A stretch of DNA of 64,000 bases from assembly GCA_032622095.1 (NCBI GenBank), contig CP136065.1, positions 247,503,474 through 247,567,473 on the forward strand, written 5' to 3'. Positions within the stretch are counted from its first letter, which is position 1, and every line of letters begins with the position of its first letter. Made by a program: the position numbers and the translations under genes. Shown piece by piece: positions 134-63,300 of the stretch. The notes beneath the pieces are model-generated. The model was not told where the DNA came from. It saw only the letters and a program-made list of their open reading frames with translations, and did not search any database. The DNA comes from Siphonodentalium dalli (lineage: Eukaryota; Mollusca; Scaphopoda; Gadilida; Siphonodentaliidae).

Positions 134-533
134 TTAACCCTTTACCCAACAGAACGGCCCTGTGCCAATGCATTCTCTTATATATGCGAGTCGACCATAG
201 GTCGCCTTGCATATATAAGAGAATGCATTGGCTTAACACATTAAAAATTATAAAATTGTTAAAGAATGTAAGAAAAAATGGTAAAAAGTGTTAATTTTTT
301 TTTTTTTTTAGGCCAATGCATTCTCTTATATATGCGAGGCGACCTATGGTCGACTCGCATATATAAGAGAATGCATTGGCACAGGGCATAACTGTAACTA
401 TCACAATGTGGTCAAGGAGCCGGTTCCAATGATATCCATATTTGTATGGTTTTATTGAGACAGACCGAAGATATTTTAGGCTGTTGAAGCTTTATTTGGC
501 CGGTTTTGGCCGGTTTGTTGGGTAAAGGGTTAA
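134..533 (-). mobile_element. Family A TTAA element (piggyBac-like MITE), copy A1
   Basis: Flanked by TTAA on both sides, with inverted ends CCCTTTACCCAACA. Two 67-bp hairpins at 165-231 and 313-379 face each other across an A/T-rich spacer. A conserved ~150-bp arm (gacagaccgaagatatttta) lies on one side only. Ends 64 bases before the BTBD17 acceptor. Confidence 0.85.
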
Positions 534-580
534 AACCAAATGAAAATACCTAAATCCAACTGAAATAATCTAAAATCGTT

Positions 581-597: not shown

Positions 598-600
598 GTA

Positions 601-2300: not shown

Positions 2301-2303
2301 CAA

Positions 2304-3660: not shown

Positions 3661-4093
3661 TACTGTACTCTAAATCCGTCCTTTTATGGGACCATCTCCT
3701 ATTATACTCAACAGAATATATGCAACAAATTTGAGCCATGGATTAGCCCTTTGAGTGCCAGGTCAATTTTTGTATCAACCCATATACCCTGTGCCAATGC
3801 ATTCTCTTATATATGCGAGTCGACCATAGGTCGCCTCGCATATATAAGAGAATGCATTGGCCTAACATTTTTTTTTTTTTACAATTTTGATAATTTATTC
3901 TTATATTCTTTAACAGACTTATTTTGTAGGTTTAGGGCCGATGAGATCGGCCCCTGGCACTCAAAGGGTTTGTGCAAAATACACTCATGTGCTCTATGAG
4001 TGATGTTAACAATATGGTAATTATAATGAAAATGAGTTTATGACTCGAGTATAATATGAGATGGTCCCATAAATCGCCGGATTTAGTGTACAG
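3659..4093. mobile_element. Palindromic element hosting B1
   Basis: The left arm (tgtactgtactctaaatcc ... gggaccatctcctattatactc) is matched in inverse at 4040-4093 (gagtataatatgagatggtccc ... ggatttagtgtacag). Removing B1 leaves a ~200-bp imperfect palindrome. Confidence 0.6.
3743..3972 (+). mobile_element. Family B element (single hairpin), copy B1
   Basis: Ends CCCTTTGAGTGCCAGG / CCTGGCACTCAAAGGG; target sites decayed to TTAG and TTTG. One 67-bp hairpin at 3794-3860, then a T-run and gggccgatgagatcggccc near the right end. Inserted in the loop of a palindromic element (3659-4093). Confidence 0.8.
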
Positions 4094-5186: not shown

Positions 5187-5510
5187 AGCATAGACTCAGA
5201 TTGAAGTTCCCAAGTGATGAATATTGTGATTTACACCCATTGGAAACCTTGATTATGCAATGTGTCATCTGCCAATTTGGGGATATAGAGAAACTGAACT
5301 GAAAAAGAAATAGAATCTGTGTGAAGAAGTTTCTTTAGAAATTTGATAATAAAGGAACTTTCCTGAGAAGATGATGCCAAAGCAGAATGAGGTCCCCAGA
5401 GGGTGAATTTATTGATGCTAGCCCACTATGCAGGATAGTGTCACTAAATTCACCCTATGTGGACCTCATTCTGCAAATGACAGACACTAAAACTCAGACT
5501 TGGTCGGCAC
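5187..5510 (-). mobile_element. Family F element, partial copy F1
   Basis: The central segment (ttgaagttccc.., cccattggaaacc..) followed by one ~98-bp palindrome at 5385-5482 (gaggtccccagagggtgaat with its inverse). The other palindrome is missing. Confidence 0.65.
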
Positions 5511-9689: not shown

Positions 9690-9950
9690 TTAACCCTTTC
9701 ATGACGGAAAATGCACTGGTGCAGCATTAAAGATACTGTGCCAGTGCATTCTCTTATATATGCGACTCTCCCATAAGGGACCTTGTATATATAAGAGAAT
9801 GCAATGGCTCACAAGGTCAAGGTAAATTTTGTTAGGCCAATGTATTCTAATATATGCAAAGCTCCCTATGGGAGACTGCCATATATAAGAGAATGCATTG
9901 GCACATGGTTTTCACAAAATTTCAGAAAGCTCCAGTCATGGAAGGGTTAA
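9690..9950 (+). mobile_element. Family C TTAA element, copy C1
   Basis: TTAA at both ends, ends CCCTTTCATGAC / GTCATGGAAGGG, two diverged hairpins at about 9740-9806 and 9836-9902. The adjacent ctggtgcagcattaa segment is typical of this family. Confidence 0.8.
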
Positions 9951-12540
9951 TTAATTAGGCCACAGCTACAGAGGGAAAAAACAATTTTAAAAACCCATCC
10001 AGGTCTTGTAATACCAAATGGCAATTATTCCACACAATCACTGGTGACATAAATCTCATATACATTCACTTGAAATAATTGTTTGCGATTAAAAATACAT
10101 AAAACCAACACATTAATTTCTCAATTATTCTCATTTTCCCATGTTATTACATGTATGACTGATAAAACGGTTTGTTGAGAAGTCTTACACAAACTGAGCA
10201 GCGTGGGCAATTTTAATAAAATAGCTGTCGGCGAAATTGGTGTTGCCATATTGGGATAAATTCTTTTAAACTATTTTGCTGTCAGCATGCTTTTTAGAAA
10301 ATATAAATTGTCTGAGAAATGAAACATTGACTTTGAATGGCGTGATGTATATATGGATATAACACAAATTAACCAAAAATATGTTCTTTAACAACAGCCT
10401 TAAAAATATCGGTGCCATTTCATGAGTATCACAGTAATTTTCTAGATGATATATTTATTCTTTCTTATGAATATGTTAGTTAACAATATGACGTCTAATG
10501 AAAAACAAGCATGACATATGATATAATGGTTAATGTCGGGTTCACATGATATATTCCAATATGGACTATCTTCCACCTAACAATGGGCATTTCTTGATTC
10601 TCAGATTTATACGGTAGTGGATATTATTTCAGTAATGGCAAAATAAAAACAAAAACATAGTCTTCCCGAAGAAATGCTCCATCCACATGGATTCAACAAA
10701 CAGACGGAGCACTCAGCTTGCACAAGAATTGGTTTATTTTGTGGGGAAAGATGTTAAGAACAATTTTCACAATTCCAAAATGACATATATCTCAGTTTCC
10801 TAAAGGAAAGCAACATTTGCTACCAAAATATAATGTATTTTAACTACTAAATCAACATGTTTACTGGTTCATAATATCAGCATATCGGCTTCTAATTATT
10901 GTGAATTTTGTATGCACTCAACCAATATATGACTCAGAAAAATGTCGCCTAATTTCAAGTCGTAAATGATCTTTCAATGTTAACAAATATAAGTGTAATT
11001 GTAGTTACCAAGTCTGGGGGAACCTCAAATTTGTCTAATAGATGAATTCATCTATATATTATAGCCAAATATGTCTATCAGATACCAGGATAGAAAACTT
11101 CACAAGTACATTAACCAAAGTTTGACCAGTGGAGTTTACTGATGAAAATAGCTGCCATGGTGTCTTAGACAAATTTGTCTATAAAATACAGCTGCATTCA
11201 TCTTTAGGCACATCTTTAGGCACAAAAAAAGAAGATATTTGATTCTCAGGCAATTTTTTGGGAAAATAATATAGGCGCGAGGGTTTTATTTTTATTCTGC
11301 CCATAGACTGGCATCCCAGGTCCAGAAAATGTAGGGAGAACTTTGTAATGGATATAAACTAATTTAATCTGATATAAAGAATGACAAATTATGACATTGT
11401 ACTACCCGTACATCATATAGGGATTACCTAGAATGAGATATATATTGATACGATTTTAAAATAACACCAGAGCTACATATCCGATTCATATGAAAATACG
11501 GAGCGTAAATACAGTCGAAATGAAAAGATAATGTGATCTTCCAAACTATCATAGAAAGTCTTGGTTCACTTATTCCGCTGACTAATTAGAGACTGAAAAT
11601 GTACCGCAATGGATGATTAATAATAAAACTTCAAAAAACATGGCCAATATACACCGATTGTCAAACTGAGTTTTTATTGCGCTCCGGTTTATCGTTCCCG
11701 AATTTATTTGTTATACCTGACCGCAGATCGAAATATTCAACAAATTGTGACAATATACCTGATAGTTATCATTACATATGGTCTTTTGTTGAATACCCAC
11801 GCATACACCATTGAATTCGATATTTGAAACATAACTAATTTCCATGGTACAGTTTCCTATTTTCGTATTATGCAGTGTACAACTACGGTGAAATCCAAAT
11901 CGTAATAAAATGGTCCAATGCGGGCCATCTTTTTTTATGCGGCAATGCGAGAATCAAAATTCTTTTTTGTTTTGGCCTTTTGTGGTTTTGTCAGACCTGG
12001 TAATAAATGAATTCCAGATTATTTAAAACACCAAATGTGTGATAAGTATAAAGATTCATATATTAGGAAATATTTCAAGATTTCTACAAGGTTAGACAAA
12101 TAATCATGTGAACCCCACCTTCATGGATGATGTAATATAAAGCTCTCATAAATAAATACTTATTATTATGAACATCTTCTGAAATATAGACCTGTCCCAT
12201 GCTTTTATTTACAGTCAAGGCTCAAGAACAGTAGCAGCTGTAAAAATAAATATCTTTGATACATGCTATGAATATGGAAAACTACTATGAAATGTCTTTA
12301 AAAGATGGGGAGGGGGGATGCAGGCCCAGTCTGAACACATCGAACAACTCAAAAAATTAAGCATACACATAATTGATTGGTGATGAAACTAGTCTTCATT
12401 GTTTCTACTATTAATACATTATTAACAGTCATTTGCAGTCGTGGAATTAGCCTTATTTTTTATCTATAATAAGTTGACTTGAGACAAAAAGTCCCTTAAT
12501 CTCAAGACACCAAAAAGTTGATTCTACATTAACCCCAGAC
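9951..12540. other. AT-rich intergenic DNA, no gene seen
   Basis: About 2.6 kb without recognisable genes or repeats. Remote or decayed elements may be present. Confidence 0.5.
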
Positions 12541-13397: not shown

Positions 13398-13417
13398 TTT
13401 ACATTACCCTTGATAAG

Positions 13418-13633
13418 TACAGTAATGCTCTAATTAATTGACTCCTTAAACACAGCAGAATTATGGGTAATTTTTCAGGATTTTGTCGGAAATATGGCTT
13501 GTTGCATTCATCGGAAAGCTCTCGGGGAGAGCTTTCCAATGAATGGCAACAAGCCATATTTCCGACTAAATCTTGAAAAGTTACCCATAATTCTGCTGTG
13601 TTTAAGGAGTCGATTAATTAGAGCATTACTGTA
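13418..13633. mobile_element. Family E palindromic MITE, copy E2
   Basis: Same ends as E1, with a longer loop containing ggaaagctctcggggagagc. It sits between the 33-bp array element and a family G repeat. Confidence 0.78.
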
Positions 13634-13635
13634 GT

Positions 13636-14003: not shown

Positions 14004-14143
14004 GTAACCCTTTCAGTGCCAAGTCCGATTTTTGTATCAACCCATATTTCCTTGATCATTTTTCAAATTTATTGATTATAATAATGTGATACATTGGTGG
14101 AAAGAGCTCTTTGTAAAATCGGACTTGGCACTGAAAGGGTTAA
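14004..14143 (+). mobile_element. Family B-type element without the hairpin module
   Basis: A 140-bp element with ends CCCTTTCAGTGCCAAG and TTAA on the right (14140-14143; GTAA on the left). Its left 40 bases match B1-B4 up to 'caacccatat', after which the hairpin is absent. This marks one edge of the hairpin module. Confidence 0.75.
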
Positions 14144-14308: not shown

Positions 14309-14578
14309 TTAACCCTTATATGACTGGAGCTTCCTGAAATTTATTGAAAACCCTGTGGCAATGCATTCTATTATATATGCGAGTCTACCATAGGGAGCCT
14401 CGCATATATAAGAGAATACATTGGCCTAACAATTTTGACAATAACAATACCTTAACCGTGTAAGCAAATGCATTCTCTTATATATGTGAGGCTCCAATGG
14501 GAGACTCGCATATAAAAGAGAATGCACTGGCACAGGATACTTAATGCTGCACAAGCGCTGCTTCCACTAAAGGGTTAA
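14309..14578 (-). mobile_element. Family C TTAA element, copy C2
   Basis: TTAA at both ends. Hairpins at about 14357-14425 and 14463-14532, the first with loop region taccatagggag, the second with ctccaatgggag. Confidence 0.78.
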
Positions 14579-18384: not shown

Positions 18385-21300
18385 CTACATTTAGAGTAAC
18401 AGCATTGTCAGTCACAGGCAAATTTCTAACATATATTAACAGATATAATTTTTCGACAGGAATTTTCTAATGGTCAACCTGATCAATCAACTACAAGTAT
18501 TTGAGTAAAATTTAAATACGGCTTAGAACAGTTAATTTAAATACGGCTTAGAACAGTTAATTTAAATACGGCTTAGAACAGTTAATTTAAATACGGCTTA
18601 GAACAGTTAATTTTCTCGACTTGAAACATATCAGGAAAAGATATAAGTTAAAACAACACAATTCTCATTAATTGTGATTGTAAATTGAAGGATACTTCCA
18701 TGACGTAGCTATCAAGATGTGATAATCATTTTGGTGACTTATCTGCATATCAAACAAATACATGCAATCTTGTCTCCAGAACTTGAAACATGGGGCAAAC
18801 AAAGACTTGTAGTTGGCACTTAGAGGAAATATCCTCGCATCAATCTAGGTAATGAGCCACCAAAATATTAGCATTATAAGACTCAGGAATCTACCTTCTC
18901 CAAGGGACATTGGCCTGTTAATGACTAACAGCACAACTTTTTATTCTCTGTCATTTTGGACCAGAACGGTAATGCCATATACATCATTTATGGTCAAGAA
19001 AGTGTCAACAATGGAATTTTGAACATACACGATAGCGGATGATAAGTGATATGGAATTGCTTCCCCAAGCTTGTAATGAAAACTATTCATCTGTTAATGA
19101 GAAATGGTAACAGCATACCTGACATTTGATATCCAGCAACGGTGGGAGATCATCCATTGTAACTTCCTCAAAATCTTCCACCTGTAATGCATAAGGTAAA
19201 TAAAACTAATTCATACACATAGATCAATTTCAAGAACACAGTACAAGTTGGAATCAATGTGAGGCAAAACAAAAATAAGTGTCCAAAGGCACTTCCCCCA
19301 AGTACTTATAGAGGGTCTTGTCATTTTTAAAGTGATGTGAAACACTCCGGTATGGTGATCAAATACAAATGGAGAATAATCTTGTTCAAAGAAGTATGTT
19401 TTTTACAAATAGTATAACAACGTTCACAGCACATATCATCGTTCTTATGTATTAATTAAATGCAGTGACTCTTGGTGGCGAAATCATTTTCGTTAGTTTA
19501 TCGCCGACAGATGCATCCCGAATCGAGTAGTAAATATTTACAAATGAGCGTAGTTCTGACGATGTTTTCTATGGAGTGGTCCGGCCGATTTGCTTCAAAT
19601 TTTCGGCGATGTTAGTAGAATGTTATATTCCTTCAGTTGGCATCGCTCCTGAATACTAACTTATTAGTTTCACGCACCCGAACAAGTACATAATATGTCT
19701 TTAACCCTTTACCCAACAAAGCGGCCAAAAACGCCCAAATAAAGCTTCAACAGCCTAAAATATCTTCGGTCTGTCTCATTAACACCATACAATTATGGAT
19801 ATCATTGGAACCGGTTCATTGACCACATTGTGATGGTTACAGTTATGCCCTGTGCCAATGCATTCTCTTATATATGCGAGTCGACCATAGGTCGCCTCGC
19901 ATATATAAGAGAATGCATCGGCCTAAAAAAAAAAAATTTTAACATTTTTTCTTACATTCTTTAACAATTTTATAATTTTTTCTTACATTTTTTTATAATA
20001 TTTTTCTACATTCTTTGACAATTTTATCATTTTTAATATGTGTTAAGCCAATGCATTCTCTTATATATGTGAGGCGACCTATGGTCGACTCGCATATATA
20101 AGAGAATTCATTGGCACAGGGCCGTTCTGTTGGGTAAAGGGTTAAAGTTACCACAAGTTCCCTTATTGTTTTTGATCTTTAAATATTCTAAAAACTTGCT
20201 GCTAACAGGCGAAGTATTATTACAGGCTTATGTATGTAACTGAACCAGCCAAATAACTTTGACATAACAACCAACAGCTTGAGTAGTAAAATTTAAAAGG
20301 CACATGAAAATTTCCTGTCACAAATACCCACCTCTCCATTGACAACGAGATTCTGTTTCTCGTTTGCTTCCACGGCATCTTTCTCATTAATCGAGCATGC
20401 AGAATATGACTCTATATTAACATCCTCGACTTCTAAAAATTGTTCCGAAGGCTGTGATGGCATGATGTCTTTCGGCTCTGTTGCAGAGATGTTGTTACGA
20501 GCATCACGTGACACAGCAGTCTCGGAAGGATCGTCGGCACTTAGTGACTCATCATCTGCTTCATCGTCATCTTCATCACTGCCGATTCTAAAACACAACA
20601 AAAGTTATAGTCATCATATCACTGCCGATTCTAAAACAAATATTATAGTCATCATATCACTACTGATTATAAACATTACAAATGCTCATAGGAAAATGAA
20701 CGGCTCGCATGTAGAATGTCTTTGTGGAAATTAATCATGACAATATCCACCCTCACATGAATAATGATTTTCATACAGTTATCGAGAAAATGCAGCCATG
20801 TTTCTGAATTATAAAAATTGGTATTTGATCCAAGATTGAACAATATTAAATCTGATATCCTAGTATTGAAGTGTAGAAGCCTGCACAGGCACTAGTTTCT
20901 CAGGACAGTGCAGATGGATTTTGTTTTTAATTACACGCTTGTTCCTAGATTACAGTGTTCTTGCTATTTACAAATCTGTAATATAATACAATATAAAAGC
21001 ATCATCAGACAATGACAAAACAAGCCTGTATGTGCCTGAATAATTATTATTTTTTATTTTTTAAATTTACGGATTCTAGGATGGGTGGTTAATTAACACA
21101 GAATGACACGTGTTAACCCTTTGAGTGCCAGGTCCGATTTTTTTATCAACCCATATACCCTGTGCCAATGCATTCTCTTATATATGCGAGTCGACCATAG
21201 GTCGCCTCGCATATATAAGAGAATGCATTGGCCTAACAATTTTTCATCATTTGTTATTATTTTTTACAATTTTAATAATTTTTTAAAAATCTAAAAAAAA

Positions 21301-42300: not shown

Positions 42301-45300
42301 TGCTATTGATTCAGCTTTTTGAAATTGGGGAAAGAACTGTGAGGATCACTTTCAGATGTATTTATGAAGCACTTTGTGCAAGTAAACATCCATTCTTCCT
42401 TCAAATAGTTCATCACAAAATAATGGTATGAAATGCTGTAATCAGAGTGTGGCATAACAAGAGTGACTGTTTCTTAGTAAATGTTAGCAGGCACGAGCCT
42501 GTCTTGCAAATAATCTCTATGTTGGGTAGTTTGGCCATACATGTCAATTTCGTGGTATGGGAATCTTGAAATCACCTAATCAGGTATAAATATGTAAAAT
42601 TATCCTTAACCGTTTGATTGCCAGGTCTGATTTTTGTATCAACCCATATACCCTGTGCCAATGCATTCTCTTATATATGCGAGTCGACCATAGGTCGCCT
42701 CGCATATATAAGAGAATGCATTGGCTTAACAATTGTTTTTTTTTTTTTTTTTTTACAATTTTTTACAATTTTAATATATTAATTTTTTACAATTTTAATA
42801 TATTTTATTATATTCTTTAACAGACTTATTGTGTAGGTTTAGGGCCGATAATATCGGCCCTTGGCACTCAAAGGGTTAAATGACCATTTAATTGTGGGTA
42901 AAACGTAGCTTAGGGTCAGGCTACCAGAAACTTGCTAATTCTTTTATCACCGATATGGTGATAAAGAATTAAGGTTCAGGTTACAAGTCCAAAAAATGAG
43001 GATAGGTTGGTAAGCTTAATATTTTATTGTTTTAATTTATGTTTTTTTATTTTTGACATATTCTTAAGGCTTTCATAGTCTTTTGCAAGATTGAGATGAG
43101 ATTAATTTTGAATATCTTTGTATAAACTATAATAAACACAATGCTTCAACAAAAAACAAGCCCGAGTTTAGTGTGTCTGTCATTTGCAGAATGAGGTCCT
43201 CAAAGGGTGAATTTAGTGATGCTTTCCCGCATAGCGGGCTAGAATCACCAACTTCACCCTCTTGAGACCTCATTCTGCTTAGGCCTCATCTTCTGGGAAG
43301 TAACTGTTGTCTCAAATTAACATTGTTTTTAGTTACTTTTTCCCTTCTGGAAAGTTTCTACATCCCCTAATTTGCAGAAGATAAATTACATAATCGAGGT
43401 GCCCAATGGGTGAACATCACAAACTTCAACTGAGGCCATGCAGAATGAAGTCCCAAGAGGGTGAATTTGGTGATGCTTGCCCACTGTGCAGGATAGCATC
43501 ACTAAATTCACCCTCTGGGGAACTCATTCTGCAAATGACAGAAAACAACCCATTCTGAGACCTTTAGGAAGTGTTTATTATATCAAAAACAAAATTAGAA
43601 AAATTTCTTGACATAAACCACCTAAAAAAAAAAAAATTCAACGTAAGGGGTGCAAAATAGAGTTGGTAGGGAAACCCGAACCCCAAGTATTGTTTTACTT
43701 TGGTGAGGAGAGCCAGTCTAACATTTGTTCACTCAAAATCAGTCTCTCCATGACATAACGAACTAAGTGAAATTAAAATAATAAGAGTACAACACCTGTT
43801 CAAGGTTAATAGCGGTGGCACCAAGAGAGTCCCGCGAGAATGGATTTTCACCCATACTACTACTCGGTGTCGACAACGAGCTAAGATTATCTACCCTTTC
43901 TACGTAATCAAACTGCGATGGCTGCTGTGACTCTTGGTGTGGTGCCTCTGATTTGTGTACCCAGGCCCGTTTCTGCAACAAATGCAAAAGTTAGAACACA
44001 CAGGATAATGTATTGAGTGGATTCCGAAAATTACATCATGAGTGCAGCCCTCATAATTGGCTACGGCAATCAGCAATACCGAAGCCATTTGCTGAAGCAA
44101 ACTGGGCCAAGACAAAGGGTTGCCGTAGCAAATTGCCGGAGCCAAACAATGTGAATTAAGATGGCTGTGAGTGACATGAATTAAGATGGCTGTGAGTGAC
44201 AGAGACCAATGTTTATTAAACTTTAAATAAATATTTGTCTCGGTCAGGAATGAGATAATTTTCTGGATCCACTCAAAAGCACATTTTTTCTTTCTATTTT
44301 ATTACACGCTTGTTCCTAGAAGTACAGTGCTATTGCTGTTCCATATTTACAAATCCATATGGATTGTCTGTATGAAATGTATGTTCTATTTGGAACCTCC
44401 ATATGGAATGTATGTTCCATAACATATGTTCCATACACATCCCGTTGACATCAGACAAAACAAACACTGTATGCGCCTAAATAAATCTTGCAAGTCTGTA
44501 TTATTAATGCATGAATTCTAGGATGGGTGACGTGTAATAAACAAAGAATGACACATGTTAATGGGTTTGTTGTTGTGTTATTGCGGAAGGATAGAACTCC
44601 CTCTTGTTCTATCCTTCCGCGCTAGCACTTGTGTCGTATCAACAAACCCATTAACACACTTGTGTCGTTCTTTGTATATATGCGTAACCAAATAAATTCA
44701 CCACTTACAAAGATTAATTTTCATATGATCACCTCAATGGATGCAGCAAAGCCACCATACAATCTCTGTCCACTTATGCTGTCTTACTTCACTGTTGCCC
44801 ACAGACATATTGTGACATTTGATATAGATGTAAAGTTAGAACACGATCTATCAAAAGCATACTAATTAAAAACTGAGTTTCCATTGTTTCTTGCAGTCAG
44901 TGATATTTGATATCAGAGAAAATTAAATTCTACAGTAAATTTAATTGAAAATATTATCATTCAGTTCTCTCCTTTCTGGAGTGAAAAAAAAAAATACCTG
45001 TTTATTTAAATTGATGATTTTTAGACACTCAGGGATTATAGCATAAATTTGGGTAAAAAATTCTCGTATTATATTTAATACAACAAAATATGTTGTAATT
45101 TAAAATGAAATTTATGTCATAACAGCAGATGAACAGTTATTAATGGACAAAAATTAAAGAGAAATTGATCAAATGACTATCACCAAACTATGAGGCAAGC
45201 TTCCTTGTACCAAGCTGAGATAATATTATGGAAATGAACTCCAGTAAACCAATCCTACCTTTATAGTTTCATCATCTGTCGTCAACAAACTTTCACTGGG

Positions 45301-48300
45301 AGTGAGTTCTGATGCTGCATATGTGTTGGTGGCTTGTGTGGTCTGCCAAGCCTGACGCTCCTGTAACGATGGGCATAGAATCTTAAATGGACATGGCTTG
45401 TTCGAACCCCAAAGTTATGTATACATAATTTGGTAAGAGGTGTCTCAAAACATATATACGGGAAAGATTTCCGAACAAGTTTGTCGATATAGTGCTGAAA
45501 ATAAGTTTTTTTTTTTCTTATATTTTTCGATAAATTTGAGATTGTTTCGTTTATGTCGATTCGACTTTTTAATAAATCGGTGGTCGTCTCAAAATTGCAC
45601 ATCTAGACCATGGGATCAATTTGGATCTTCCTGAAATTTTATGAAAACCCTGTGCCAATGCTTTCTCTTATATGTGCGAGTCTCCCATAGAAAGCCTCGC
45701 ATATAAAAGAGAATACATTGGCCTAACAATATTTACCTTGACCTTGTAAGCTGTGCATTCTCTCATATATGCAAGGCTCCCGAGGGAGGCTTGCATATAT
45801 AAGAGAATGCAATGGCACAGGATCTTTAATGCTGCACCAGCGCAACTCTGGTTATGAATGGGTTAAATGATCTGAAGGACAACCGAATGGACGTGTGGAC
45901 ATTGTATATAACTCACCATTCAGCACATGAGTGGAAACAACCAATAATACTCACATAAACATTGGTTGGCATGTCTGGGGCAGAAGATATGTAATCAGAG
46001 ACGATTTGTCGGATTGCCGAAAGACATCGTGTTCGGAGATAGTCTGTCGATATCAGTTGTAGCTCTTTGAACACTTGAATCAGAAAATGTGGGCGGTTCT
46101 CATTCTGTGAGATGAATGCTGCGACTTCCGAGTATATTGTCTGGCGGAGAGCTTCAAATAAACTTAAATCGTTCTGTGACTCAGAATCCCTGTAAATGAA
46201 ATAAAACTGTAATAATAAAATCGTGGAACAGTGTACTTCAAAGTAGACTAAAATCATCCCATGACTAGAATCCAGTCAATCAAAACTAGAGGTGGGCTGT
46301 CCCAATGGGACTAAGGATACCCCTCGTGTCAGTCGAGAAAAACTGCAAACAAAATTGCCCAATCAGCCTATGTGCCAAGTTTTTTAAAGATTGACCGGAA
46401 AATGTAGGAATTCAAGCTCGGACAAAGTTCTGCATGTTGCAAAAAAAATTTAAGTCGAAAGAGGGGGATAACTCCACAAAAAAGTCAGACAGACCTCATA
46501 ATCGCAGGTACTAAATATCTGTGCCAAATTAAAAAAAAAAAAATTGACAGAAAAATGTAGGAATAAAAGCTCGGACAAAATTGTGACAACGGACGGACGC
46601 CCCGAAGGATGGACAGACAAGCTGATTCCAGTGTACCCCCCTCCCCACATCTCGTTGTGGGAGTATAACAATCCTAAACCTAAAATCATGTTTAGTACAA
46701 TCAGGCACTTCTACAAAGTGAATTAATTGATTTGTCTTCAAGATGTTCAGATGTCATTGAACAAGGTTTGTAGAAGTGTTAGGTTTACAAATAATGTTTT
46801 CATTATGCTCTCAAAGTATGTCAGTACAAAAAAAAATAAAAAATTGGGATAGTTTTAAATATTTAGGCTTTTCAAAACTTGAGATAATTAAGAGGTTTAG
46901 GTATTATAAAATTTACCTATCATCAACATTCTCTGGACCGGGTTCACTCGATGCAACACTCGACACGCTGGCCTGATCCCATGATGCGGTCGCACCCATG
47001 GCTCCGGTTTGTGATGCTAGGTTGCGGAATCTCCCATACTCTACAAGACAAAGTAGCAAATTAACCCCTGATTATTAAATATTAGCTGGTTAGAAGTTAA
47101 TTTAGAAATTTTTAGATAAAAAGTGATTTTTTAGATAAAAAGTGATTATGGAACATTTCCGCCAAATGACAGAATAGAGACATTATAACCTCGGAAAGGA
47201 TGGCTGAAATATGAAACTGGAATCAATGCAAATGATCAAGACAACCGAATACACATTTCAAATCTGACTAAACATTTTAAGTTTCATTTTCACAATCTGC
47301 AAACAAGGTTAACTAGATACAATGCTATTACAGTGTTAATCAAGTACAATGCCAGAATAACATTTAATCAAACAATATGTGAGGAACAAAGATAACAAGA
47401 GAACCACTTGGGCTTGGCTAAATACAAAAGTTTGTTTGCCCATTACGACTAACATAAGCCCATACGCTTGATATTGAACCTGGTCCATAATGTATATACT
47501 ATATTGATGTAATATCTATTGTAAGACTCTTGAGATGTGGCCCTGTGCACTCAGGATCACCTCAGCACAGGACACATCGTTGATGATTCATCTGGCAATC
47601 AATAAACGCCAAATGTTGGGATCGGACAATGGAAATCATATGAGAACCATCTGGAGGGAAGTTTGTGATAATATATCTTGGAGAGAAGTCGTGACGCTTT
47701 CCCGCTCCGCTATACCAACATGCTGGTGTGAATGCGATGATTGTGTGACTTAATTATGAAGAGTTATAAATGTCGTGGTATGTCAGTAAATAAAAATCCT
47801 TATCATCCTAAATCAAAGGAGCCTGATTTTCCCTCCCATATGTTCGCTCGTGGCCAGAGTGGTACACTATTGTTGTATTATTCATGGAATAAATACTGAT
47901 TAACCCTTTACCCAACAAACCGGCCAAAAACGGCCAAATAAAGCTGCAACAGCCTAAATTATCTTGGGTCTGTCTCAATAAAACCATACAGATATGGATA
48001 TCATTGGAACCGGCTCATTGACCACATTGTGATGGTTACAGTTATACCCTGTGCCAATGCATTCTCTTATATATGCGAGTCGACCATAGGTCGCCTCGCA
48101 TATATATAAGAGAATATATTGGCCTAAAAAAAATCTTTTTTTAACACTTTTTACCATTTTTTCTTACATTCTTTAACAATTTTATCATTTTTAATGTGTT
48201 AAGCCAATGCATTCTCTTATATATGCGAGGCGACCTATGGTCGACTTGCATATATAAGAGAATGCATTGGCACAGGGCCGTTCTGTTGGGTAAAGGGTTA

Positions 48301-51300
48301 AACAAGGCGATGCAAAGTCAATTTCTGTTTCTCAGGCCAAACAATTCTGCACTGGCACAGGATCTTTAATGCTGCACCAGTGCAGCTCCCGTCATGAAAG
48401 GGTTATCAAATCAGGTAAATTCTATGTTGATAAAGGGCCGTAACTAATGAAAAAAAATCATTGGATCAAATCTATATATATTCAAACTTATTACCTGTAT
48501 TTTTGTCTGAGGAACACACATACCAATATTTGTTCTGATCAAGTATAAATCCAAACTGAAGTTATCAGTTGGCAACCAAAATATTAACGATCCGTAGTCC
48601 GACTGATTACACAACACAACCGTTTTTTCAAGTGGCATATAAAACTGACCTTGTTGTTCTTCATAGGTTGTTGATGTTGATTTATTCACCTTTCTTGCTC
48701 TGTTTTGTCTGAAGAAATTAAATCTAAATTGAGGGGGCCAGGTTTATGAATACAAAATTTGTCAAAATTATTATTAAACATCTTCGGAAAGCTTAACTAA
48801 AATAAATTCCAAGGTATGTCCAGATAATAGGTTAGATTAGGTTCAAACTGCTAAGATATATATATATATATCGGTATCGGAAATCAGGCCGATTGTGTCG
48901 CTAAATAATTTGTAATCAGGTTTTTTCGTAATTGGCTCATCTCCATATAATAAGCCTTTCTATACTGAATGGATTCTCCCATTCAGTTATAAAAGTCTAA
49001 ATTGGGAGATACAGCGCTGTGGTTGTTTGGGGGCATATTTAGTAAGAACAGCATCACGGTTCACGACCACAGTACCGTATCACTCAATAACACACTACAA
49101 TCATTTACCATTTCTGTTTTTGAGTCAATCTGTTATCCTGAAGATTTTTGTTACCTTTTGAATTGTGCTTTGAGTCGATAAATTACCTTTTCTGCCTTTG
49201 AGTTCGCTCACTGAGCCTGAGAGGAGGAACAGGTCTGTTTCCGGCGGACTCCGGTCGTCTGTTAGCTGCATTATATAATGCTGGGTTTGGAACATTCTCT
49301 CTCACTTGACGATATGCATCAGCAGCTGAATTTACTGGTAATGACGTAATAATATTACTCCGATCGTTCTGACTCTGGGCTGCAGTTCGATTACCCATAA
49401 CTCCTTGCTCTCTGCCTTCCTGGGTATTCCGACCAGGAAACGGCGGAACTGTTGGTCGTAATGCGAAATCACTTCTCTGCACATTAGGACTAATAGTAGG
49501 AGCTGCTGTATTCGGAGCTCCATCGTACGTCGTATTCCGAACTGGGAATAGCGGAACTTTGGGTCTAAGAGTGAAATCGTTTCGTTGAACGTTTGGTACA
49601 TTTGGACTGATGGTTTGTGCGTTAGCCGACGTCGTCCCATCGTAAGGTGTAGACATTACTGGAAACGTAGCATTATTGAGTTGGGCTGGCATTCCCGTGT
49701 CGCTATGGTGATAGGTGAGATTTTGGTTGTCGAAGAGATTGAATAGTTGGTTGATTTGATGTTGAATACTTGTGATCTGAGACTGCTGCACGGACAGCTG
49801 TGGGTGACAGTTATTCATGAGAAGCATCTGTTGCTGCATCATGTCAGGCATCGTGTTACTCCGGCACGTCATACTCGGACTCATGGACACTCCTGTAATA
49901 TCAATAAGAAAATAATAATGAGACAAAATAAGGCCAAATAAAATATATTATTTCAGTCTCAGACATCGCCGCATTGAAATAAATGGCCGGCATTGGACGT
50001 CTTATTTCAATTTTTTATATTATGACCAAAAAAGGTTAAAAATGAAAAATAAATACAATTTTTCAAAATTATTTTGCTATGCTTTTAATATGTCCATATG
50101 TATTGAGTATTAATATTAACATACATGAACTCTTAACATATCTCTGTGATTGATAGATTGACTATCATATATATACATTGTGACATAGAACATTAAGTAG
50201 ATGACTACATGGAAGAAAATGATTAGCTGATCATCATAGTCTGGTGTACTAATTGGAACTCCAGAACAATTGAAAGGTACTGGTACTTCATGTCATGTGA
50301 TTTTATTTGTGTGGGGTATTGAAAGGTACTGGTACTTCGTGTCATGTGATTTTGTTTGTGTGGGGCATTGAAAGGTACTGGTACTTCGTGTCATGTGATT
50401 TTATTTGTGTGGGGTATTGAAAGGTACTGGTACATCATGTCATGTGATTTTATTTGTGTGGGGTATTGAAAGGTACTGGTACTTCATGTCATGTGATTTT
50501 GTTTGTGTGGGGTATTGAAAGGTACTGGTACTTCGTGTCATGTGATTTTGTTTGTGTGGGGTATTGAAAGGTACTGGTACTTCGTGTCATGTGATTTTAT
50601 TTGTGTGGGGTATTGAAAGGTACTGGTACTTCGTGTCATGTGATTTTGTTTGTGTGGGGTATTGAAAGGTACTGGTACTTCGTGTCATGTGATTTTGTTT
50701 GTGTGGGGCATTGAAAGGTACTGGTACTTCGTGTCATGTGATTTTGTTTGTGTGGGGTATTGAAAGGTACTGGTACTTCGTGTCATGTGATTTTGTTTGT
50801 GTGGGGTATTGAAAGGTACTGGTACTTCGTTTCATGTGATTTTGTTTGTGTGGGGTATTGAAAGGTACTGGTACTTCATGTCATGTGATTTTGTTTGTGT
50901 GGGGCATTGAAAGGTACTGGTACTTTGTGTCATGTGATTTTGTTTGTGTGGGGTATCCCATGGGTGAACTTATGGAAGGGAATAATTATTGTGAGGATAA
51001 TTCTAACCTGATGTATTGACAAGGTTTTGACTATAATTCTTACCTGAGGTATTGACATGGTCTTGACTATAATTCTAACCTGATGTATTGACAAGGTTTT
51101 GACTATAATTCTAACCTGAGGTATTGACATGGTCTTGACTATAATTCTAACCTGATGTATTGCTGTGGTTTTGACTATAATTCTAACCTGATGTATTGAC
51201 AAGGTTTTGACTATAATTCTTACCTGAGGTATTGACATGGTCTTGACTATAATTCTAACCTGATGTATTGACAAGGTTTTGACTATAATTCTTACCTGAG

Positions 51301-54300: not shown

Positions 54301-57300
54301 ATTGTTCATTATTCCAGTTTATTGAAACCTAATGTAGATCATCGTCAGGTTGGCGCCTGAAAGTGTTCCGACTCCTACTTTTCATGGAACCTGCGATAGG
54401 TTTCCATCTACATGGGTAAAATTAATGCGGGATAGTAATGGAGATAGTAATGCTGATGGGGTCATTGTCACAAGGCTCCGGTCACATTCGTAGCCAGCTT
54501 TTTAAATCGATCACAAATGTAGCCAGCTTTTCTACGGCGATCACATTTGTAGCCAGCTTTTCATATTCATGCGAACCTCAAAGAACAAGATTAGGTTAGT
54601 CTCATTTTTCTGAGTTGATGAATGAAATACAACATAAATTTTAATTTGATATTAGTTCATCTAATAACCTGAGGTTTCCGATCCATGTCGTTAGATGCTC
54701 GAATTATATTCCAATATAAGTTGATAAACGAAGTCAGTTTTGGAGCATGACGTCGGCATTTTAGTCACGAACGAGATGACGTCATATTTCGCGCCATATA
54801 AAGCATGGAATTAGAAAAGCTGGCTACGAATGTGATCGCCGGCGAAAAGCTGGCTACATTTGTGATCGATTTAAAAAGCTGGCTACGAATGTGACCGAAG
54901 CCTTGTGACAATGACCCCATCGGTGTTAGTAATACAATAAAACATATTTACATTTGTCATATTCAAAGTTTTCAAACTAAAATTTTAGAACCAAATTCGA
55001 ATTGAATATTGGGACCTTAATTGAATAACGAATCAAACAATTAAATATTTGCAGGACCCTACTGTGAACATTTATCAACCACTAGAACATGTAATAAATG
55101 TTTTTTTTAAACAAACCTCTTGTTTCCTTCTGTTATTTTTCTTTCCTTTTGGTTTCGCGCCAGCATAGTTTCCATCATTCTGGACATTTATTTGTTTTGG
55201 GTTTGCTGAAATAATATGTAATTTATCATTAAACTATCGAATGAACACTGATTCTCTGACAGTACTCTCATCTAATTTAATCTGCTGCATTCAATTGAAA
55301 ACAAATGTTTGCCATCACAATTTTAGGAGTGCAACAGGTCTTCAAGTCCATATTTTATATCAATGTGCACATAATTAAACAATCTTTCCATTCATCCAAA
55401 ATATGTAGGGCTGCAATGAGACCTCGTTTAAAAATGACCATCATCTCGGTTCTAGCATTAAAGCAATACATTACTTCAATACGGATGCAATGTTCCTCAA
55501 CATAGTGGAAATAACTGTCAACTTAACATGACATGGTGGAGGTGACCATTATCGAAACGGAACTATGCCTCAGGTTCCACCAGCGATAAGTTGGGACCCC
55601 TTTGTGTTGGCCTGACATCCCTGTTTTGACTGAAGACATGCCTGTCGACCGGTGTGACGACCAGATAAATTGTCATATAAAAAAGCGATTTTATCTGTCT
55701 TGTTGCTTATAAAAGTATTTAATTAATAAATTGGCCACGCAAACGTTCCTTGCATTAAAATTTATTTTTGAGAACAAACGTCCTCATTAGTAGAGTCCTC
55801 GTTTAGTCAGTCAAGTCACTTATCTCTACATATTGGGTGCTAAAAATTTCTTGGAAAAGCGACCCAATGCTTGAATCTATTTGGCAATTCTGGAGGCTAC
55901 GAATTCGTAAATAAGTCAACTGAATATAAATCAATTAAACAGTGATTTATTTATAACATCATTTTGAATGGAAAACTACACCACGTCCGACAGACACTAG
56001 GAGTGGGAAAATAAAACAAAATTATTCAGATGTGAATGTAAATGAAACAAAATTAAAAGATATACTGCAATATATAGACTAAAGTAATTCAGAGTTGATA
56101 CACTTTTTCGGCGCAGTGATGGGAAATTTCAACGCGGTCCTCATCCATTTACAATGTGGTCACTATGCACCCTCAACATGTTGTAAACACAACAGCTGCA
56201 TTATGTTGACGTTACAACCACATGGCTGATGCCCGCGTTAAAAGGGACAGTTATTTTGAGAATATGTGTATACTATGCTTTTGAATGTACTATCACCAGT
56301 AAAGACATTGCACAGATGCTACGGTTTCTGATTACACTATCAACAAGTACTCTACACATACAGTAATGCTCTAAGTAATCAACCCCTTAACCACAGAAGA
56401 ATTATGGGTAACTTTTCAGGATTTAGTCGGAAATATGGCTTGTTGCCATTCATCGGAAAGCTCTCCCCGAGAGCTTTCCGATGAATGGCAACAAGCCATA
56501 TTTCCGACTAAATCCTGAAAAGTTACCCATAATTCTGCTGTGGTTAAGGGGTCGATTAATTAGGGCATTACACATACTTTGGTTTCGGAGTGAGCGTGGG
56601 AAGCTCTGGTTCTGGTTCCTCTTGCTGAGGAGTGATGTTTGCCTTGAACATCTCGCTCGCTCATGTCTCGCGTTGTCTTCTAAGCTGTAATTATTCCTCT
56701 GACGTGAACTCGCTTCCTCCTCTTCTTCTACTTGAACAATACCATCGCTAGGGAAACCTGTCAAAATATAATAACATTGCTAGGGAAACCAGTCATAGGT
56801 AACATCGCTAGGGAAACCAGTCATAGGTAACAATTGAAAGAAAATCCGGAGTTTGCTGGGTGCCCCTTGAATTTGGGAAAATCAGATCAATATATAAACT
56901 AGTATTTTCAGTTTTATTTCAATATGCCCGGTTTCAGTGATAAACAAATAACCAGACTTTAACCTTTCCATGACTTTAGCTTCCTGAAATTTTGCGAAAA
57001 CCCTGTGACAATGCATTCTCTTATATTTGCGAGTCTCCCATAGGGAGCCTCGCATATATTAAGAGAATACATTGGCCTAACAATATTTACCTGCACCTTG
57101 CAAGTTAGTACGTTCTCTTATATATGCGAGGCTCTCTACGGGAGACTCGCATATATAAGCGAATGTACTGGCACAGGATATTTAATGCTGCACCAGGGCA
57201 GCTCCCGTCATGAAAGATTGAAGATTGGATATTCATAGCGAAGGCCAAACAAAATTAATGTTCTGTTTCTCAGACATTGACCACCAAAGAAATATGGCCT

Positions 57301-60300
57301 GCTGGGTGCTTTTTATGGCCAACCAAAAACTAAAATTATTAATCATCCTGCCGTTCAGCTTCAGAACACACGTGCGCAATCTTTGTCCATTTAAACTTGT
57401 AATAGATATTTCCCTTTGTTATTTCTGATAATATATAAGTTTTCTTTTTGGTTTGTTTAAACTGTATGTATTTGGCTTATACAACAGATTGTTATATTAA
57501 AATTGCAATCACTTAACCCTTTTCTGACAGGAGCTGTACTGGTGCAGCATTAAATACCCTGTCCCAGTGCATTCTCTTATTTATTTGAGTCTCCCATAGG
57601 GAGCCTTGCAAGAGAATGCACTGGCTTACAAGGTCAAGGTAAATATTGTTAGACCAATGCATTCTCTTATATATGCGAGGCTGACTGTGGGAGACTTGCA
57701 TATACAAGAGTATGCATTGGCACAGGTTTTCGCAAAATTTCAAAAAGCTCCAGGCATGAAATGGTTAATCAAGAAAAGTCATTTTTCACACCAATCTGTT
57801 TTTTGTTGATAATTCGGGAATAAACATGAAAACCTGCCTGCTTGGAAATTTTGGTTGTCTGAAAAAGCATGGTTCAAATTGTCTCGACATGGTCTTACCA
57901 CCCACTAGTTAGATTTAAACAATATTTATTTCTTCCCCAAAAAACATTTAATTATGAAACATGTATGTATATAAGACTGGAATGGAGGAAGATTTGACAA
58001 CAAGCATCAGATTCTTATATATAACCATCTCCTCAGAAAATGACAAAGAAAAAAGAAAAGAATAGTGTATAGTGAGAAGTGAGAAGTGGAAGACAAGATT
58101 GAGTAAGAGGAAGAAAAACAGGGCATGATGAGAAGATTAATGAACTGATGAAAAAGAGTTAGGTGAGAAAAAATAAAAAATTAATACATGTATAGAAAAT
58201 TATCACTTCTCTTATGCACACGATATTGTTTAACGTAGGAAATATTAAAACTGCGAGTAGAGTGGAGTCACTAGATAGCCATGTACCACCTTTATATGGC
58301 TTTCAGTGCAGCATCGTGTTAGTGAAATGGTTACCACATTGTTAGCAATATCATTCTTGATTTATCTCTCTGAAAATAATCGAAATCAAGCAGCTCATTA
58401 TGAGTCAGAAACACAAGCGTCCAACAAAATTGGTTGCTAGTTAATTTTAAGGTTTGTGTTGCCTCAAATATAGTCTTGTTAAGTCTTTTGGGGAATGAAG
58501 TAGATCCTTTAAGTAGAAATCATATTTCCACAAATTTTGGGCTAATACAGAGACTATTTAATTTCGTATTGTTGAGTGCTTGGGGCGATAATGTAGCCCA
58601 CTAGTTTTAACCCTTTATCCAACATAACGGCCCTGTGCCAATGCATTCTCTTATATATGCGAGTCGACCATAGGTCGCCTCGCATATATAAGAGAATGCA
58701 TTGGCTTAACACATTAAAAATTATAAAATTGTTAAAGAATGTAAGAAACGAGAGGCCGATCACGATCGGCAGATGTTTAACCCATCCCTTGGCGATAGTA
58801 AATTGTTAAGATCAGAATCATAATCTTTTAATGTTGAATTATAGAGTATACTGTTATGATCTAAAGTAGTATATGACAAATGTACATAATAACCAGTAAT
58901 AACACAAATTATTGGAATGTATGAGTCAATATAGAAGGGTTAATATAACATCTAAACTCTAGAGCCTGTCACCACTATCATAGTGTGCGCAGTTCTATTC
59001 ATGTTGTTGCAAATTGCCATGTGAGATATCAAAATAATATAATTATTTATTTAATGGAAAAGGTTAAAAGACATGGAATGGGTAAAAGGGGTTAAATCAC
59101 CTATCTCTGCCCTGTTTGATCCAATGTAGTCCCATCATCCAAGGACTTAGAGAGCTCCATTGGTCTAGTTAAATCAATTCACCTGGCTAAGTTGTGGTTA
59201 AAAAGATAGCTAAATCAATTTATCCAATAATTCACTGTGTCTCTTATACAGACCTAACATATGAGGGCTATAAATAACTCTCAAAGCAATAAACTATATT
59301 GTCTTTTATCTTGCTCACAGAGAAGCAGGTATTCATTAATTGTAAGTTACTTGGGTTATAATCTGGATAATTCTTAGTTTAAAAAGGGCCATATCTCTGG
59401 TATAACAAATTGGATCTAACCCATATTCAAACTCGTTCTGTATTTTGAGTTGAGAAACTCACATACCAAATTTGGTTCCTATCAGATGAAAAGTGGTTGA
59501 TTTATCGAAGTACATGTATGTGTGAATCATATGTCAAAGGACCATAACACCATTAAAAAAAATCCGATCAAACCCATATTCGAAATCAATCTGTATGTTG
59601 GTCTGAGAAACTCATACACCAAATTTGGTTCCAATCAGATAAAAAATGTTTGAGTTATGGCAGAATTCATGAATTCTAAGTCGAAAAAGGGCCATAACTC
59701 CGTAAAAAAAACTCCGATCAAACCCATATTTGAACTCGATCTGTATTTTGGGTCGAGAAACTCACATACCAAATTTGGTTCCGATCAGATAAAAAATGTT
59801 TGAGTTATGGCAGAATTCATTAATTCTAAGTCGAAAAAGGGCCATAACTCCGTAATAAAAAGTCGGATCAAACCCATATTCGAACTCGATCTGTATTTTA
59901 GGCTGAAAACCCCATATACAAAATTTGGTTTTGATCAGGTAAAAAATGTTTGAGTTATCGCATTACACGTAAAGTGTCTACGGACGGACAGACAGACAGA
60001 CGGACGGACAGACGGACGGACGGACGGACGCACGACGAGTGGTCAATCCGGACAACGACACTATGTTTACCATACATGGTATGGGTAAACATAAAAATGG
60101 TAAAAAGTGTTAAAAAAAGATTTTTTTAGGCCAATGCATTCTCTTATATATGCGAGGCGACCTATGGTCGACTCGCATATATAAGAGAATGCATTGGCAC
60201 AGGGCATAACTGTAACTATCACAATGTGGTCAATGAGACGGTTCCAATGATATCCATATTTGTATGGTTTTATTGAGACAGACCGAAGATATTTTAGGCT

Positions 60301-63300
60301 GTTGAAGCTTTATTTGGCCGGTTTTGGCCGGTTTGTTGGGTAAAGGGTTAACTAACCATCATCCTCGTCTTCTTCGTTGCTATCTTCTCCATCAATGTCA
60401 TCATCCTCCGTTATGCTCTCCAGATTATCGACAGTCGACCCTCCCCAGGTTGCCATGGTAGCATCTACACTAGCTGCAGCTCTGGAAGCAGATTTATCAA
60501 GTATTACATCACAAACAGATACCATGAATACCAATTATGAGTCATGACTGGCCAGATAAGCCCAAAAGTAGTTCATTCAGGAAGCCAGGGCTCAGGAACA
60601 TATGAAGCGTATTTTTCCGCTGAATGTTTGTTGAAGTCAGACATGATAAATGTTAAATTGATGTCCCTGCCTTTTTGACTGCTATTTCACCTACAGATAT
60701 AAAGATCTATTCAGGATTCAAGGTTAACATTTTGCTTTTCATTTACGTTTTAAAATTTAAATGTTGAAAATAACATGTTTTGAGCCAAGAATTTCAATGG
60801 AAGAGACAATTTTCAACCAATTTCAGCCCAGTTACTGAACTACAGCTTAAATTTTGCATTACAGAATAACGTTACAAAGTATTTATAAGGTTATTTTAAA
60901 TGCTAAAATGTGGTTTCTCATAAATTTTAAGCCTGATATATACCCGAATGCTTCAGTAGAGTATGATACTGTGTCACTCTGATTGTCTTGGTTACGGGAG
61001 TACTGTTTTCTGTTTCTATCTTTCCGCATGATCGCCTCCAGTTCTTTCTTCTTTGACCTCAACTCCTCGCGAATTATTCTCTGTTTCCTCATACTGTCAT
61101 AGATCTCATCATTTGATGAAACTGGAACATTATTCAAGGTTTCTAAATTAGTTATTAACTCTTTACCCAACAAACCGGCCAAATAAAGCTTCAACAGCCT
61201 ACAATATCTTCGGTCTGTCTCAATAGAACCATACAAATATGGATATCATTGGAACCGGCTCCTTGACCACATTGTGATAGTTACAGTTATGCCCTGTGCC
61301 AATGCATTCTCTTATATATGCGAGTCGACCATAGGTCGCCTCGCATATATAAGAGAATGCATTGGCCTAAAAAAAATCTTTTTTTAACACTTTTTACCAT
61401 TTTTTCTTACATTCTTTAACAATTTTATAATTTTTAATGTGTTAAGCCAATGCATTCTCTTATATATGCGAGGCGACCTATGGTCGACTCGCATATATAA
61501 GAGAATGCATTGGCACAGGGCCCTTCTGTTGGGTAAAGGGTTAAAGCCATATTTCACAAGGTTCATGAGGTAATTTTAACAACAATCTTTAACCATGAGT
61601 GACCTGTTTCTGATGTGTCTTTCATATATTTTGGCCTTTTTGTTGCCACAATGTCAAGTCATGTCATTGAGAGCTGATTAAAAAAAAAGTCACGAGAAAA
61701 TACATATATGCTGTCCAGAGATACAGAGATCAAAATCTGGAATGAATGCATTTTTCACTCTAAGGCCCATAACTCTGAAAGAATAGACAAAACCCGGATA
61801 TCCTATGAGGACTCAGAGCTCCAAAGTTGTTAGATGGAATAAAGTATGGAATCCATTTCTATATCTCCTGCCAAACTTTGCTTGCATGGGGGTGGGGGAG
61901 CAGGAGTTGGGGCAGAGGGATAATAATGCAACTTACATGTGACACAGGGTGTGTTCTGTGATACACTAGTATTTTCCTCTGGAGGGTTTGTCTTCTTTAC
62001 ATCAGGTTTATTTGATTCTTCTGGTTGCTTTGGAGCGGTCTCTTGGGCCTGTTTGAAAATAACAAATTGTATAGAAATATGTATCCTGAAGTGAAAACCT
62101 GGTAAACATTCTAAGAAACATAATACTGTGAATGGCTTTAAATTCGTTGGTATTAATGTTCGTGGTCCAGCCATTTATGACTTTAACGTGGGTTCGTAAA
62201 TATGTGGGTCCGCCGGTACTTGGGTCCGCCGGTACTAACTATTGCTTCCAAACCCCCAAATAATTACAATCAAGTCCAACGAATAGAAGTGCAGACACAT
62301 AACCTAGGTGAAATTCACTCTCTTTTCATAACATAACTCCCTAGGCGATGAATGTACATCGAGTCAATAGTTACATGTACCTCCCGCTTGACATTCTCAA
62401 AATGGCGCCCGCGATAGTTTTGAAGATAACATTTTTTCGTGGGGTTTTTAATTTGGTTGTCATCAACAACCAAGAAAACCATGAAAATTGAACCACCACG
62501 AATAAATGTACTTTTACAGTAGAATAAAAATCGGGCATGACAGATTTTTTAACTTATGAGTGACAAAGTCTGCCATTTGCAATAACAATTTATTTTATGC
62601 AGGAAATTATTTATGCTATCAGAATAAGCTCCCACAGGATGTGTACAGAGGCAAGGCTTGGTGTTTTGTCTATGATAGCATATATCATGGCCAATGTTGA
62701 CGATGTTGATTATCGTCAGTAACAACAGTTAGTTACAAATGGACAAAGTGTTCTTGGTATATTAATCAAATTTGTTGAAAAATCAAAATGAATATAATGG
62801 CTGATTATGACAAGATGCGGCCGTATTTATATTTTATCTCATTCTAAATAAATTCCGAAAGCGAAACCAGCTGAACGCGCATGCACACAGGTAATGTACC
62901 TTCGTACTATTGAATAAGCGTACCAATTTAATTAGCGGTCTGTTGTCTTGGTGAAATTGATTGAACAATGGCGACTTCACAGATAATTAGAGCAATGACA
63001 CGTTGTTTTTACAGCAGTTATTGTGTTGGTGTGGGCTCTTTGTTTTCACAAAAAATGTCAAAACTAAACACTAATTCGCTAAAAGTTCACGGTGGTGGTT
63101 TATTGTCACCACCAGTTTAAATCAACTTATCACACATAATGAGCCGTCGGGAAAATGACAACTCAGAGTTGAATATAGACCAGAATATTAAACATAAAAT
63201 ATCCCCAGTCTACAGCAAAGCCGACAAGAGCTCAGCGTCAAGTATGTCAAATCTACTGTCAACAACATTTTAAAAAACCGTTAATCACCATAAAATTTAT

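What the first reader, a model, noticed from the sequence alone, without database searches (positions are those of the whole stretch)
134..61544. One 67-bp hairpin module shared by mobile elements with four unrelated terminal sequences
I count about 32 hairpins with outer arms ccaatgcattctcttatata + tgcgag and their inverse. They occur in families A (two, facing), B (one), C (two) and element D (two, one broken). The ends of A, B, C and D differ completely, yet in all of them the module starts at CCCTGTGCC and its far side at ggccta. The B-type element at 14004-14143 matches B up to the module edge and lacks it. This suggests a cassette passed between elements (by nested insertion, recombination or template switching), or a functional part that several families acquired. 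I know of no described system of this form.
Basis: partly seen in the sequence, partly recalled or inferred. Interest (0 to 1): 0.88.

Follow-up and report, generated by a model that had tools for sequence, protein, structure and literature searches.

The report
Hairpin cassette shared by transposon families
In one stretch of animal DNA, four kinds of small mobile element with unrelated outer sequences carry the same hairpin-forming cassette, which stayed nearly unchanged in the lineages that kept multiplying, as if it helps them spread.

Summary
The window carries 32 copies of a 67-nt hairpin (one lacks an arm) in 18 non-autonomous elements: A 8, B 4, C 5, D 1. None of the 32 module starts found is outside such an element or a C fragment. 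Outer parts align only within a family. A–C look piggyBac-type (TTAA, CCCTTT-like ends); D does not.

Two corrections. A–C ends are not wholly different. And the shared unit is larger than the hairpin: in A, B and D about 60 bp inside it is homologous too, and A, C and D carry two facing hairpins with tips CCCTGTG…CACAGGG, i.e. an inverted-repeat cassette ("E").

New result: private changes are equally common in hairpins and outer DNA (2.8% v 3.0%), but changes shared by several copies of a family lie almost all outside (2 of 368 columns v 18 of 331; p=1e-4). Multiplying lineages kept the hairpin; dead copies do not.

I read E as a cassette transferred among families and kept for a cis role, most likely a subterminal palindrome used by piggyBac-like transposases. 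Transfer route and binding protein are unproven. The host genome is not held, so nothing beyond 64 kb was compared.

The parts
134..533 (-). A1: TTAA-flanked element, two facing hairpins (165-231, 313-379)
3743..3972 (+). B1: CCCTTTGAGTGCCAG ends, one hairpin 3794-3860 plus spacer homologous to A and D
9690..9951 (+). C1: CCCTTTCATGACGG-type ends, two diverged hairpins 9741-9807, 9837-9901
14004..14143 (+). B0: B-type element without the cassette; interior unrelated to B
14309..14578 (-). C2: hairpins 14358-14424, 14465-14530
19701..20145 (+). A2: hairpins 19855-19921, 20048-20114; expanded spacer
21113..21384 (+). B2: hairpin 21165-21231
23551..23989 (+). D: ~47-bp outer inverted repeats (46 of 47 alike) ATATGTGACCCGCC..., hairpin 23606-23672, and a right hairpin lacking its outer arm (about 23893-23938); longest spacer
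26349..26748 (+). A3: hairpins 26503-26569, 26651-26717
32611..32998 (+). A4: hairpins 32755-32821, 32901-32967
33835..34217 (-). A5: hairpins 33866-33932, 33997-34063
39218..39458 (+). B3: hairpin 39270-39336
42606..42879 (+). B4: hairpin 42658-42724
45605..45871 (-). C3: hairpins 45655-45721, 45750-45815; low end decayed
47900..48301 (+). A6: hairpins 48054-48122, 48204-48270
48340..48409 (-). C6: end fragment of a C element, no complete hairpin
56956..57222 (-). C4: hairpins 57008-57075, 57105-57171
57513..57769 (+). C5: hairpins 57564-57624 (6-nt deletion), 57654-57720
58607..58748 (-). A7, first piece: hairpin 58638-58704; the element is interrupted by other repeat DNA
60087..60351 (-). 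A7, second piece: hairpin 60131-60197
61155..61544 (+). A8: hairpins 61299-61365, 61447-61513

Best explanation
The shared thing is a small inverted-repeat cassette, E: tip CCCTGTG, a 67-nt palindrome (31-bp stem, one T·C mismatch, ATA loop), an AT-rich spacer, then the same palindrome and tip in reverse. Shown: four non-autonomous families with outer parts that do not align carry it; it has defined tips on both sides in A, C and D; B keeps one palindrome plus spacer. Shown, with caveats: changes shared by several copies of a family almost all lie outside the palindrome, while private changes do not spare it. Inferred: E passed between families a few times (swap of interior DNA during gap repair, or nested insertion), and each composite was then copied by the transposase that recognises its outer ends. 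Inferred: the palindrome was kept because it acts in cis on mobility, most likely as a subterminal palindromic binding site for a piggyBac-like transposase. My odds: transfer rather than simple descent 0.85; constraint 0.65; transposase site as its reason 0.35.
For: Outer parts match only within families (9 of 110 comparisons). A and B consensus hairpins identical over 74 bases. Spacer homology of about 60 bp in A, B and D. Shared changes, outer columns v hairpin columns: A 9/163 v 0/148, p=0.004; B 2/78 v 0/74, p=0.5; A+B p=0.0009; C 7/90 v 2/146, p=0.03; pooled 18/331 v 2/368, p=1.1e-4 (which mends C coordinates used). Private changes per letter, pooled: outer 62/2036, hairpin 61/2198, p=0.65. 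Palindrome -33.2 kcal/mol, z -14.2. Two neighbouring stem pairs differ on both sides between C and A/B/D and stay paired. [quoted passage not shown] In A, E likewise begins at unequal distances (143 bp, 133 in two copies, and 20 bp).
Against: No transposase found: 16 scans of 14 distinct reading frames gave two confident genes (BTB-BACK, PCM1_C) and no transposase; most of the 49 frames were not scanned. D is not TTAA-type yet carries E. B keeps only one palindrome. The palindrome (67 nt) is far longer than piggyBac's 19 bp, and piggyBat has its palindromes at one end only. One C hairpin has a pair-breaking G-to-A in 4 of 5 copies. B departs from the pattern: private changes also spare its hairpin (0/296 v 8/311, p=0.008). 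The test was chosen after seeing the alignments; shared columns in C may be parallel changes; the number of stem pairs with double changes is not unusual (85 of 500 shuffles).
Confidence: 0.42

Rival explanations
1. E is simply another MITE that inserted into A, B, C and D progenitors (nested insertion); the composites then spread and E is a passenger.
For: Defined inverted tips CCCTGTG/CACAGGG in A, C and D; TA on both sides of E in D; TA just before the tip in B (4 of 4), 2 of 8 A copies and C5.
Against: No duplication of flanking bases in A (TTAT[G/A] v CC) or C; no bare E among 32 module starts; a passenger should gain shared changes as fast as its host element, but did not; B against B0 looks like replaced interior.
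Confidence: 0.25
2. All four families descend from one E-bearing ancestor; the outer ends diverged or were rebuilt, and only the palindrome stayed recognisable.
For: A, B and C share TTAA and CCCTTT-like tips; D's inverted repeat is symmetrical right up to the cassette tip.
Against: Outer parts show no match between families, while A and B hairpins are identical; a B-type element without E exists.
Confidence: 0.12
3. Hairpins are kept alike by ectopic gene conversion or hairpin-provoked breakage, not by selection.
For: B hairpins have 0 changes in 296 letters against 8 private changes in 311 outer letters; long palindromes can provoke breaks (recalled).
Against: In A and C private changes are about as common in hairpins as outside (8/1184 v 14/1284; 53/718 v 40/441), so old copies are not being corrected; C has kept a different inner stem from A/B/D.
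Confidence: 0.13
4. The palindrome works as RNA (a MITE-derived small-RNA precursor) and is kept for that.
For: As RNA it folds at -50.9 kcal/mol with a 31-bp stem.
Against: No Rfam family matches the window at gathering score; no expression data.
Confidence: 0.08

Closest known systems
piggyBac-superfamily non-autonomous elements (MITEs)
   Same: A, B and C: TTAA on both sides, CCCTTT-like 5' ends, no coding capacity seen, palindromes inside the ends
   Different: Palindrome is 67 nt and shared by families with different outer sequence; no transposase identified; D is not of this type
MER6, a mariner-type MITE carrying the V domain of a fish SINE (PMC6887750; abstract and section 2.4 read)
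   Same: A conserved module of one kind of element is carried and multiplied by an unrelated DNA transposon
   Different: One capture across element classes; here one cassette sits in four families within 64 kb and is a palindrome
SINE families that share a conserved central domain under different heads and tails (recalled; the V domain is named in the PMC6887750 abstract)
   Same: Shared middle, unrelated ends
   Different: SINEs are copied through RNA, where template switching is natural; these are DNA elements
KolobokP composite-like transposons (PMC9587614; abstract and passages read)
   Same: TTAA target; repeat units with their own short inverted ends inside a larger element; rich in bivalves
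   Different: Kolobok ends are 5'-RR, these are CCC-like; the nested units there are long direct repeats
ATon elements of Aedes aegypti (PMC3422177; passages read)
   Same: Stem-loops in both subterminal regions of one family (ATon-I)
   Different: ATon-I and II share their terminal sequence and not the interior, the reverse of the case here

Membership tests
piggyBac-type MITE (families A, B, C) | TTAA target site at both ends | tested here: met
   Intact on both sides in 7 of 8 A, 3 of 4 B, 3 of 5 C; the rest altered on one or both sides
piggyBac-type MITE (families A, B, C) | 5'-CCC-type ends (Kolobok has 5'-RR) | tested here: met
   Exact CCCTTT at 15 of 16 A and 7 of 8 B ends; only 4 of 11 C ends, the rest decayed. 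Kolobok rule from a passage of PMC9587614; the piggyBac CCC rule is recalled
piggyBac-type MITE (families A, B, C) | Mobilised by a piggyBac-family transposase | not testable with these tools
   Genome not held; no transposase among the 14 frames scanned
piggyBac-type MITE (family D) | TTAA target site | tested here: not met
   Flanks read ATAT or TA; ends ATATGTGACCC
Nested MITE (cassette E as an inserted element) | Inverted ends with target-site duplication at each insertion | tested here: not met
   No duplication in A or C; TA on both sides in D; B has one end only
Nested MITE (cassette E as an inserted element) | Also found alone outside other elements | tested here: inconclusive
   0 of 32 module starts are bare, but only this 64-kb window could be searched
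Kolobok | 5'-RR / YY-3' ends | tested here: not met
   Ends are CCCTTT-like
Known structured RNA | Match to an Rfam family | tested here: not met
   0 matches at gathering score over the window

The most novel reading that the evidence does not exclude
The palindrome cassette is a mobile cis-acting mobility signal: a transposase- or host-factor-binding hairpin that moves between DNA-transposon families, even of different superfamilies, and makes whatever element captures it multiply, so that selection among elements maintains it apart from the ends that carry it.
Probability: 0.22. Interest if true: 0.8.

Novelty: new variant of a known kind. Interest (0 to 1): 0.52.

Why it matters
Why some MITEs multiply far beyond others is an old question (recalled). 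A cassette carried by several families, and kept intact mainly in lineages that went on multiplying, would be a natural test case for a cis-acting amplification signal that can be swapped between elements. It also shows, for DNA elements, the 'same middle, different ends' pattern known from SINEs.

Tried and rejected
External relatives: the 26-base arm in genome contigs (prokaryotes) gave 0 matches. An 18-base core gave 3, none showing the other arm in the 50 bases that follow. A 17-base core in viral contigs gave 32 single matches; a scan of those 32 loci for a 26-base arm with up to 5 mismatches gave one arm-like stretch in 3 of them (L002, L007, L024) and no pair of arms. A-end, B-end and D-end patterns in viral contigs gave 0 each. 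These are the wrong collections for an animal element, so the absences say little.

Rfam: nothing at gathering score. Paper library: the arm sequence is in 0 papers. Searches on shared interiors, nested or composite MITEs, template switching, palindromes and mollusc piggyBac MITEs showed no description of this arrangement in their listings (one search listed none); the library holds open-licence papers only, and most listed papers were not opened.

Covariation: cells with a change on both sides 19 v 9.2 expected, 0 of 500 shuffles; but the number of such pairs is 5 v 3.7 (85 of 500), and 15 of the 19 cells come from two neighbouring pairs that separate C from A/B/D. Weak support (one search was the same count with one hairpin cut 5 bases short).

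E as a TTAA insertion: rejected, no TTAA directly at any E boundary. Hairpin tree against end tree: dropped, no informative sites in A and B hairpins.

My own error, mended: the C5-left hairpin was cut 5 bases short. One search recounted with it whole (and one base fewer at the inner edge of C3-left): shared hairpin changes rose from 1 to 2 of 368 and pooled p from 1.6e-5 to 1.1e-4. Odds left as they were.
Full report
WHAT IS THERE. The window is animal-type DNA: a BTB-BACK gene at 586-1884 and a PCM1 C-terminal match at 45913-46275. Its genome is not held. Within it lie 32 copies of a 67-nt palindrome, carried by 18 elements of four families: A (8 copies, one interrupted by other repeat DNA), B (4), C (5, plus an end fragment) and D (1). 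All 32 module starts found with up to 3 mismatches lie in such elements or in the C fragment. The palindrome folds almost perfectly: 31-bp stem, one T·C mismatch, ATA loop, -33.2 kcal/mol as DNA, z -14.2, 0 of 200 shuffles.

THE ELEMENTS. TTAA stands on both sides in 7 of 8 A, 3 of 4 B and 3 of 5 C. CCCTTT is exact at 15 of 16 A, 7 of 8 B and 4 of 11 C ends; C is older and decayed. By ends and target, A–C look like piggyBac-type non-autonomous elements; Kolobok, the other TTAA group, has 5'-RR ends (passage of PMC9587614). D has about 47-bp inverted repeats (46 of 47 alike) beginning ATATGTGACCC, with no TTAA. Taking one representative of each outer part of A, B, C, D and the module-less B0, in both orientations, 9 of 110 comparisons stood out (at most 8 of 400 shuffles) and all were within a family, B0 counted with B. 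'Differ completely' is thus right for the outer sequence but overlooks the shared TTAA and CCCTTT-like tips of A–C.

THE SHARED UNIT IS LARGER THAN THE HAIRPIN. Read inward from A-left, B and D-right, homology continues for about 60 bp past the palindrome (A4–D score 71, B1–D 67, A4–B1 45; 0 of 300 shuffles each). D-left and C spacers do not clearly match A (34 and 22 of 300), nor does the spacer read inward from A-right match B or D (153, 96 and 164 of 300). A, C and D carry two facing palindromes with tips CCCTGTG and CACAGGG (worn in C). So the unit is an inverted-repeat cassette, E, of which B keeps one half. C carries a version with a different inner stem.

HOW IT GOT THERE. Consensus hairpins of A-left, A-right and B are identical over 74 bases; D-left differs at 2; C differs more. 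Identical middles and unmatched outer parts argue for transfer. Nested insertion predicts a target duplication: there is none in A or C; D has TA on both sides; B has one end only. The module-less element B0 matches B3 at 37 of 40 bases up to the cassette, but its interior is not found beside the cassette in B (no match beyond chance, 65 or more of 500 shuffles). That fits exchange of interior DNA, as in gap repair with template switching, better than insertion. One element is thin evidence; I leave the route open.

CONSTRAINT. I split changes within each family into private (one copy) and shared (two or more copies). Private changes per letter are alike: outer 62/2036 (3.0%), hairpin 61/2198 (2.8%), p=0.65 (with outer counts). 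Shared changes are not: outer 18 of 331 columns, hairpin 2 of 368, p=1.1e-4. Family A alone gives 9/163 v 0/148 (p=0.004), and its shared columns mostly define consistent subfamilies (A2+A5; A3+A4+A8), though one column groups A4 with A6. C alone gives 7/90 v 2/146 (p=0.03). So dead copies decay evenly while lineages that went on multiplying kept the palindrome. Caveats: the split was chosen after seeing the alignments; some shared columns in C may be parallel changes; B gives no signal in shared changes (2/78 v 0/74), and its private changes also spare the hairpin (0/296 v 8/311, p=0.008), which would fit conversion or a recent shared source.

STRUCTURE. Two neighbouring inner-stem pairs differ on both sides between C and A/B/D and stay paired. 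Across 18 distinct hairpins (31 of 32 used; broken D-right left out), cells with changes on both sides are 19 v 9.2 in shuffles (0 of 500), but the number of such pairs is not unusual (5 v 3.7, 85 of 500). One C hairpin carries a pair-breaking change in 4 of 5 copies. Support for keeping the fold itself is weak; support for keeping the sequence is better.

MOST LIKELY WORKING. piggyBac transposase binds a subterminal palindrome with two cysteine-rich domains, and its ends carry identical 19-bp palindromes at unequal distances from the tips; piggyBat has palindromes at one end only (passages of PMC11707139). A has identical palindromes at unequal distances (E tips 143 or 133 bp and 20 bp from the element tips), B has one. 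I therefore think E's palindrome serves as such a site, or for another factor needed for mobility, in A–C. In D, whose single copy has one broken hairpin, it may be idle. This is inference: no transposase was found in the 14 frames scanned.

NOVELTY. Modules carried by unrelated elements are known: MER6 carries a SINE domain (PMC6887750, abstract and section 2.4), and SINEs share central domains (recalled). I saw no description of one palindrome cassette shared by several DNA-transposon families in the listings. I file it as a new variant of a known kind.

Noticed in passing
58750-60093: About 1.34 kb of other repeat DNA interrupts element A7: imperfect ~150-bp repeats, an ACGG run, and small palindromes near both ends.
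   Followed up: partly
2304-2491, 13411-13643, 29036-29315, 56346-56571: A separate foldback family with arms of roughly 95-140 bp (97% complementary at 2304-2491).
   Followed up: no
35705-38651: Tandem array of a 52-bp unit, about 57 copies.
   Followed up: no
12582-13433: A 33-bp tandem repeat that stays open as a reading frame; Mucin-like match below its cut-off.
   Followed up: no
3935-3953, 21347-21365, 39421-39439, 42842-42860: The right end of all four B copies carries its own small palindrome GGGCCGAT...ATCGGCCC, not seen at the left end.
   Followed up: no
23893-23942: In D the right hairpin lacks just its outer 26-nt arm: the tip CCCTGTG joins directly to the loop side.
   Followed up: partly
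5192-5502, 28210-28653, 40034-40904, 43156-43544: Another dispersed repeat family (pieces about 75-94% alike), distinct from A-D.
   Followed up: no
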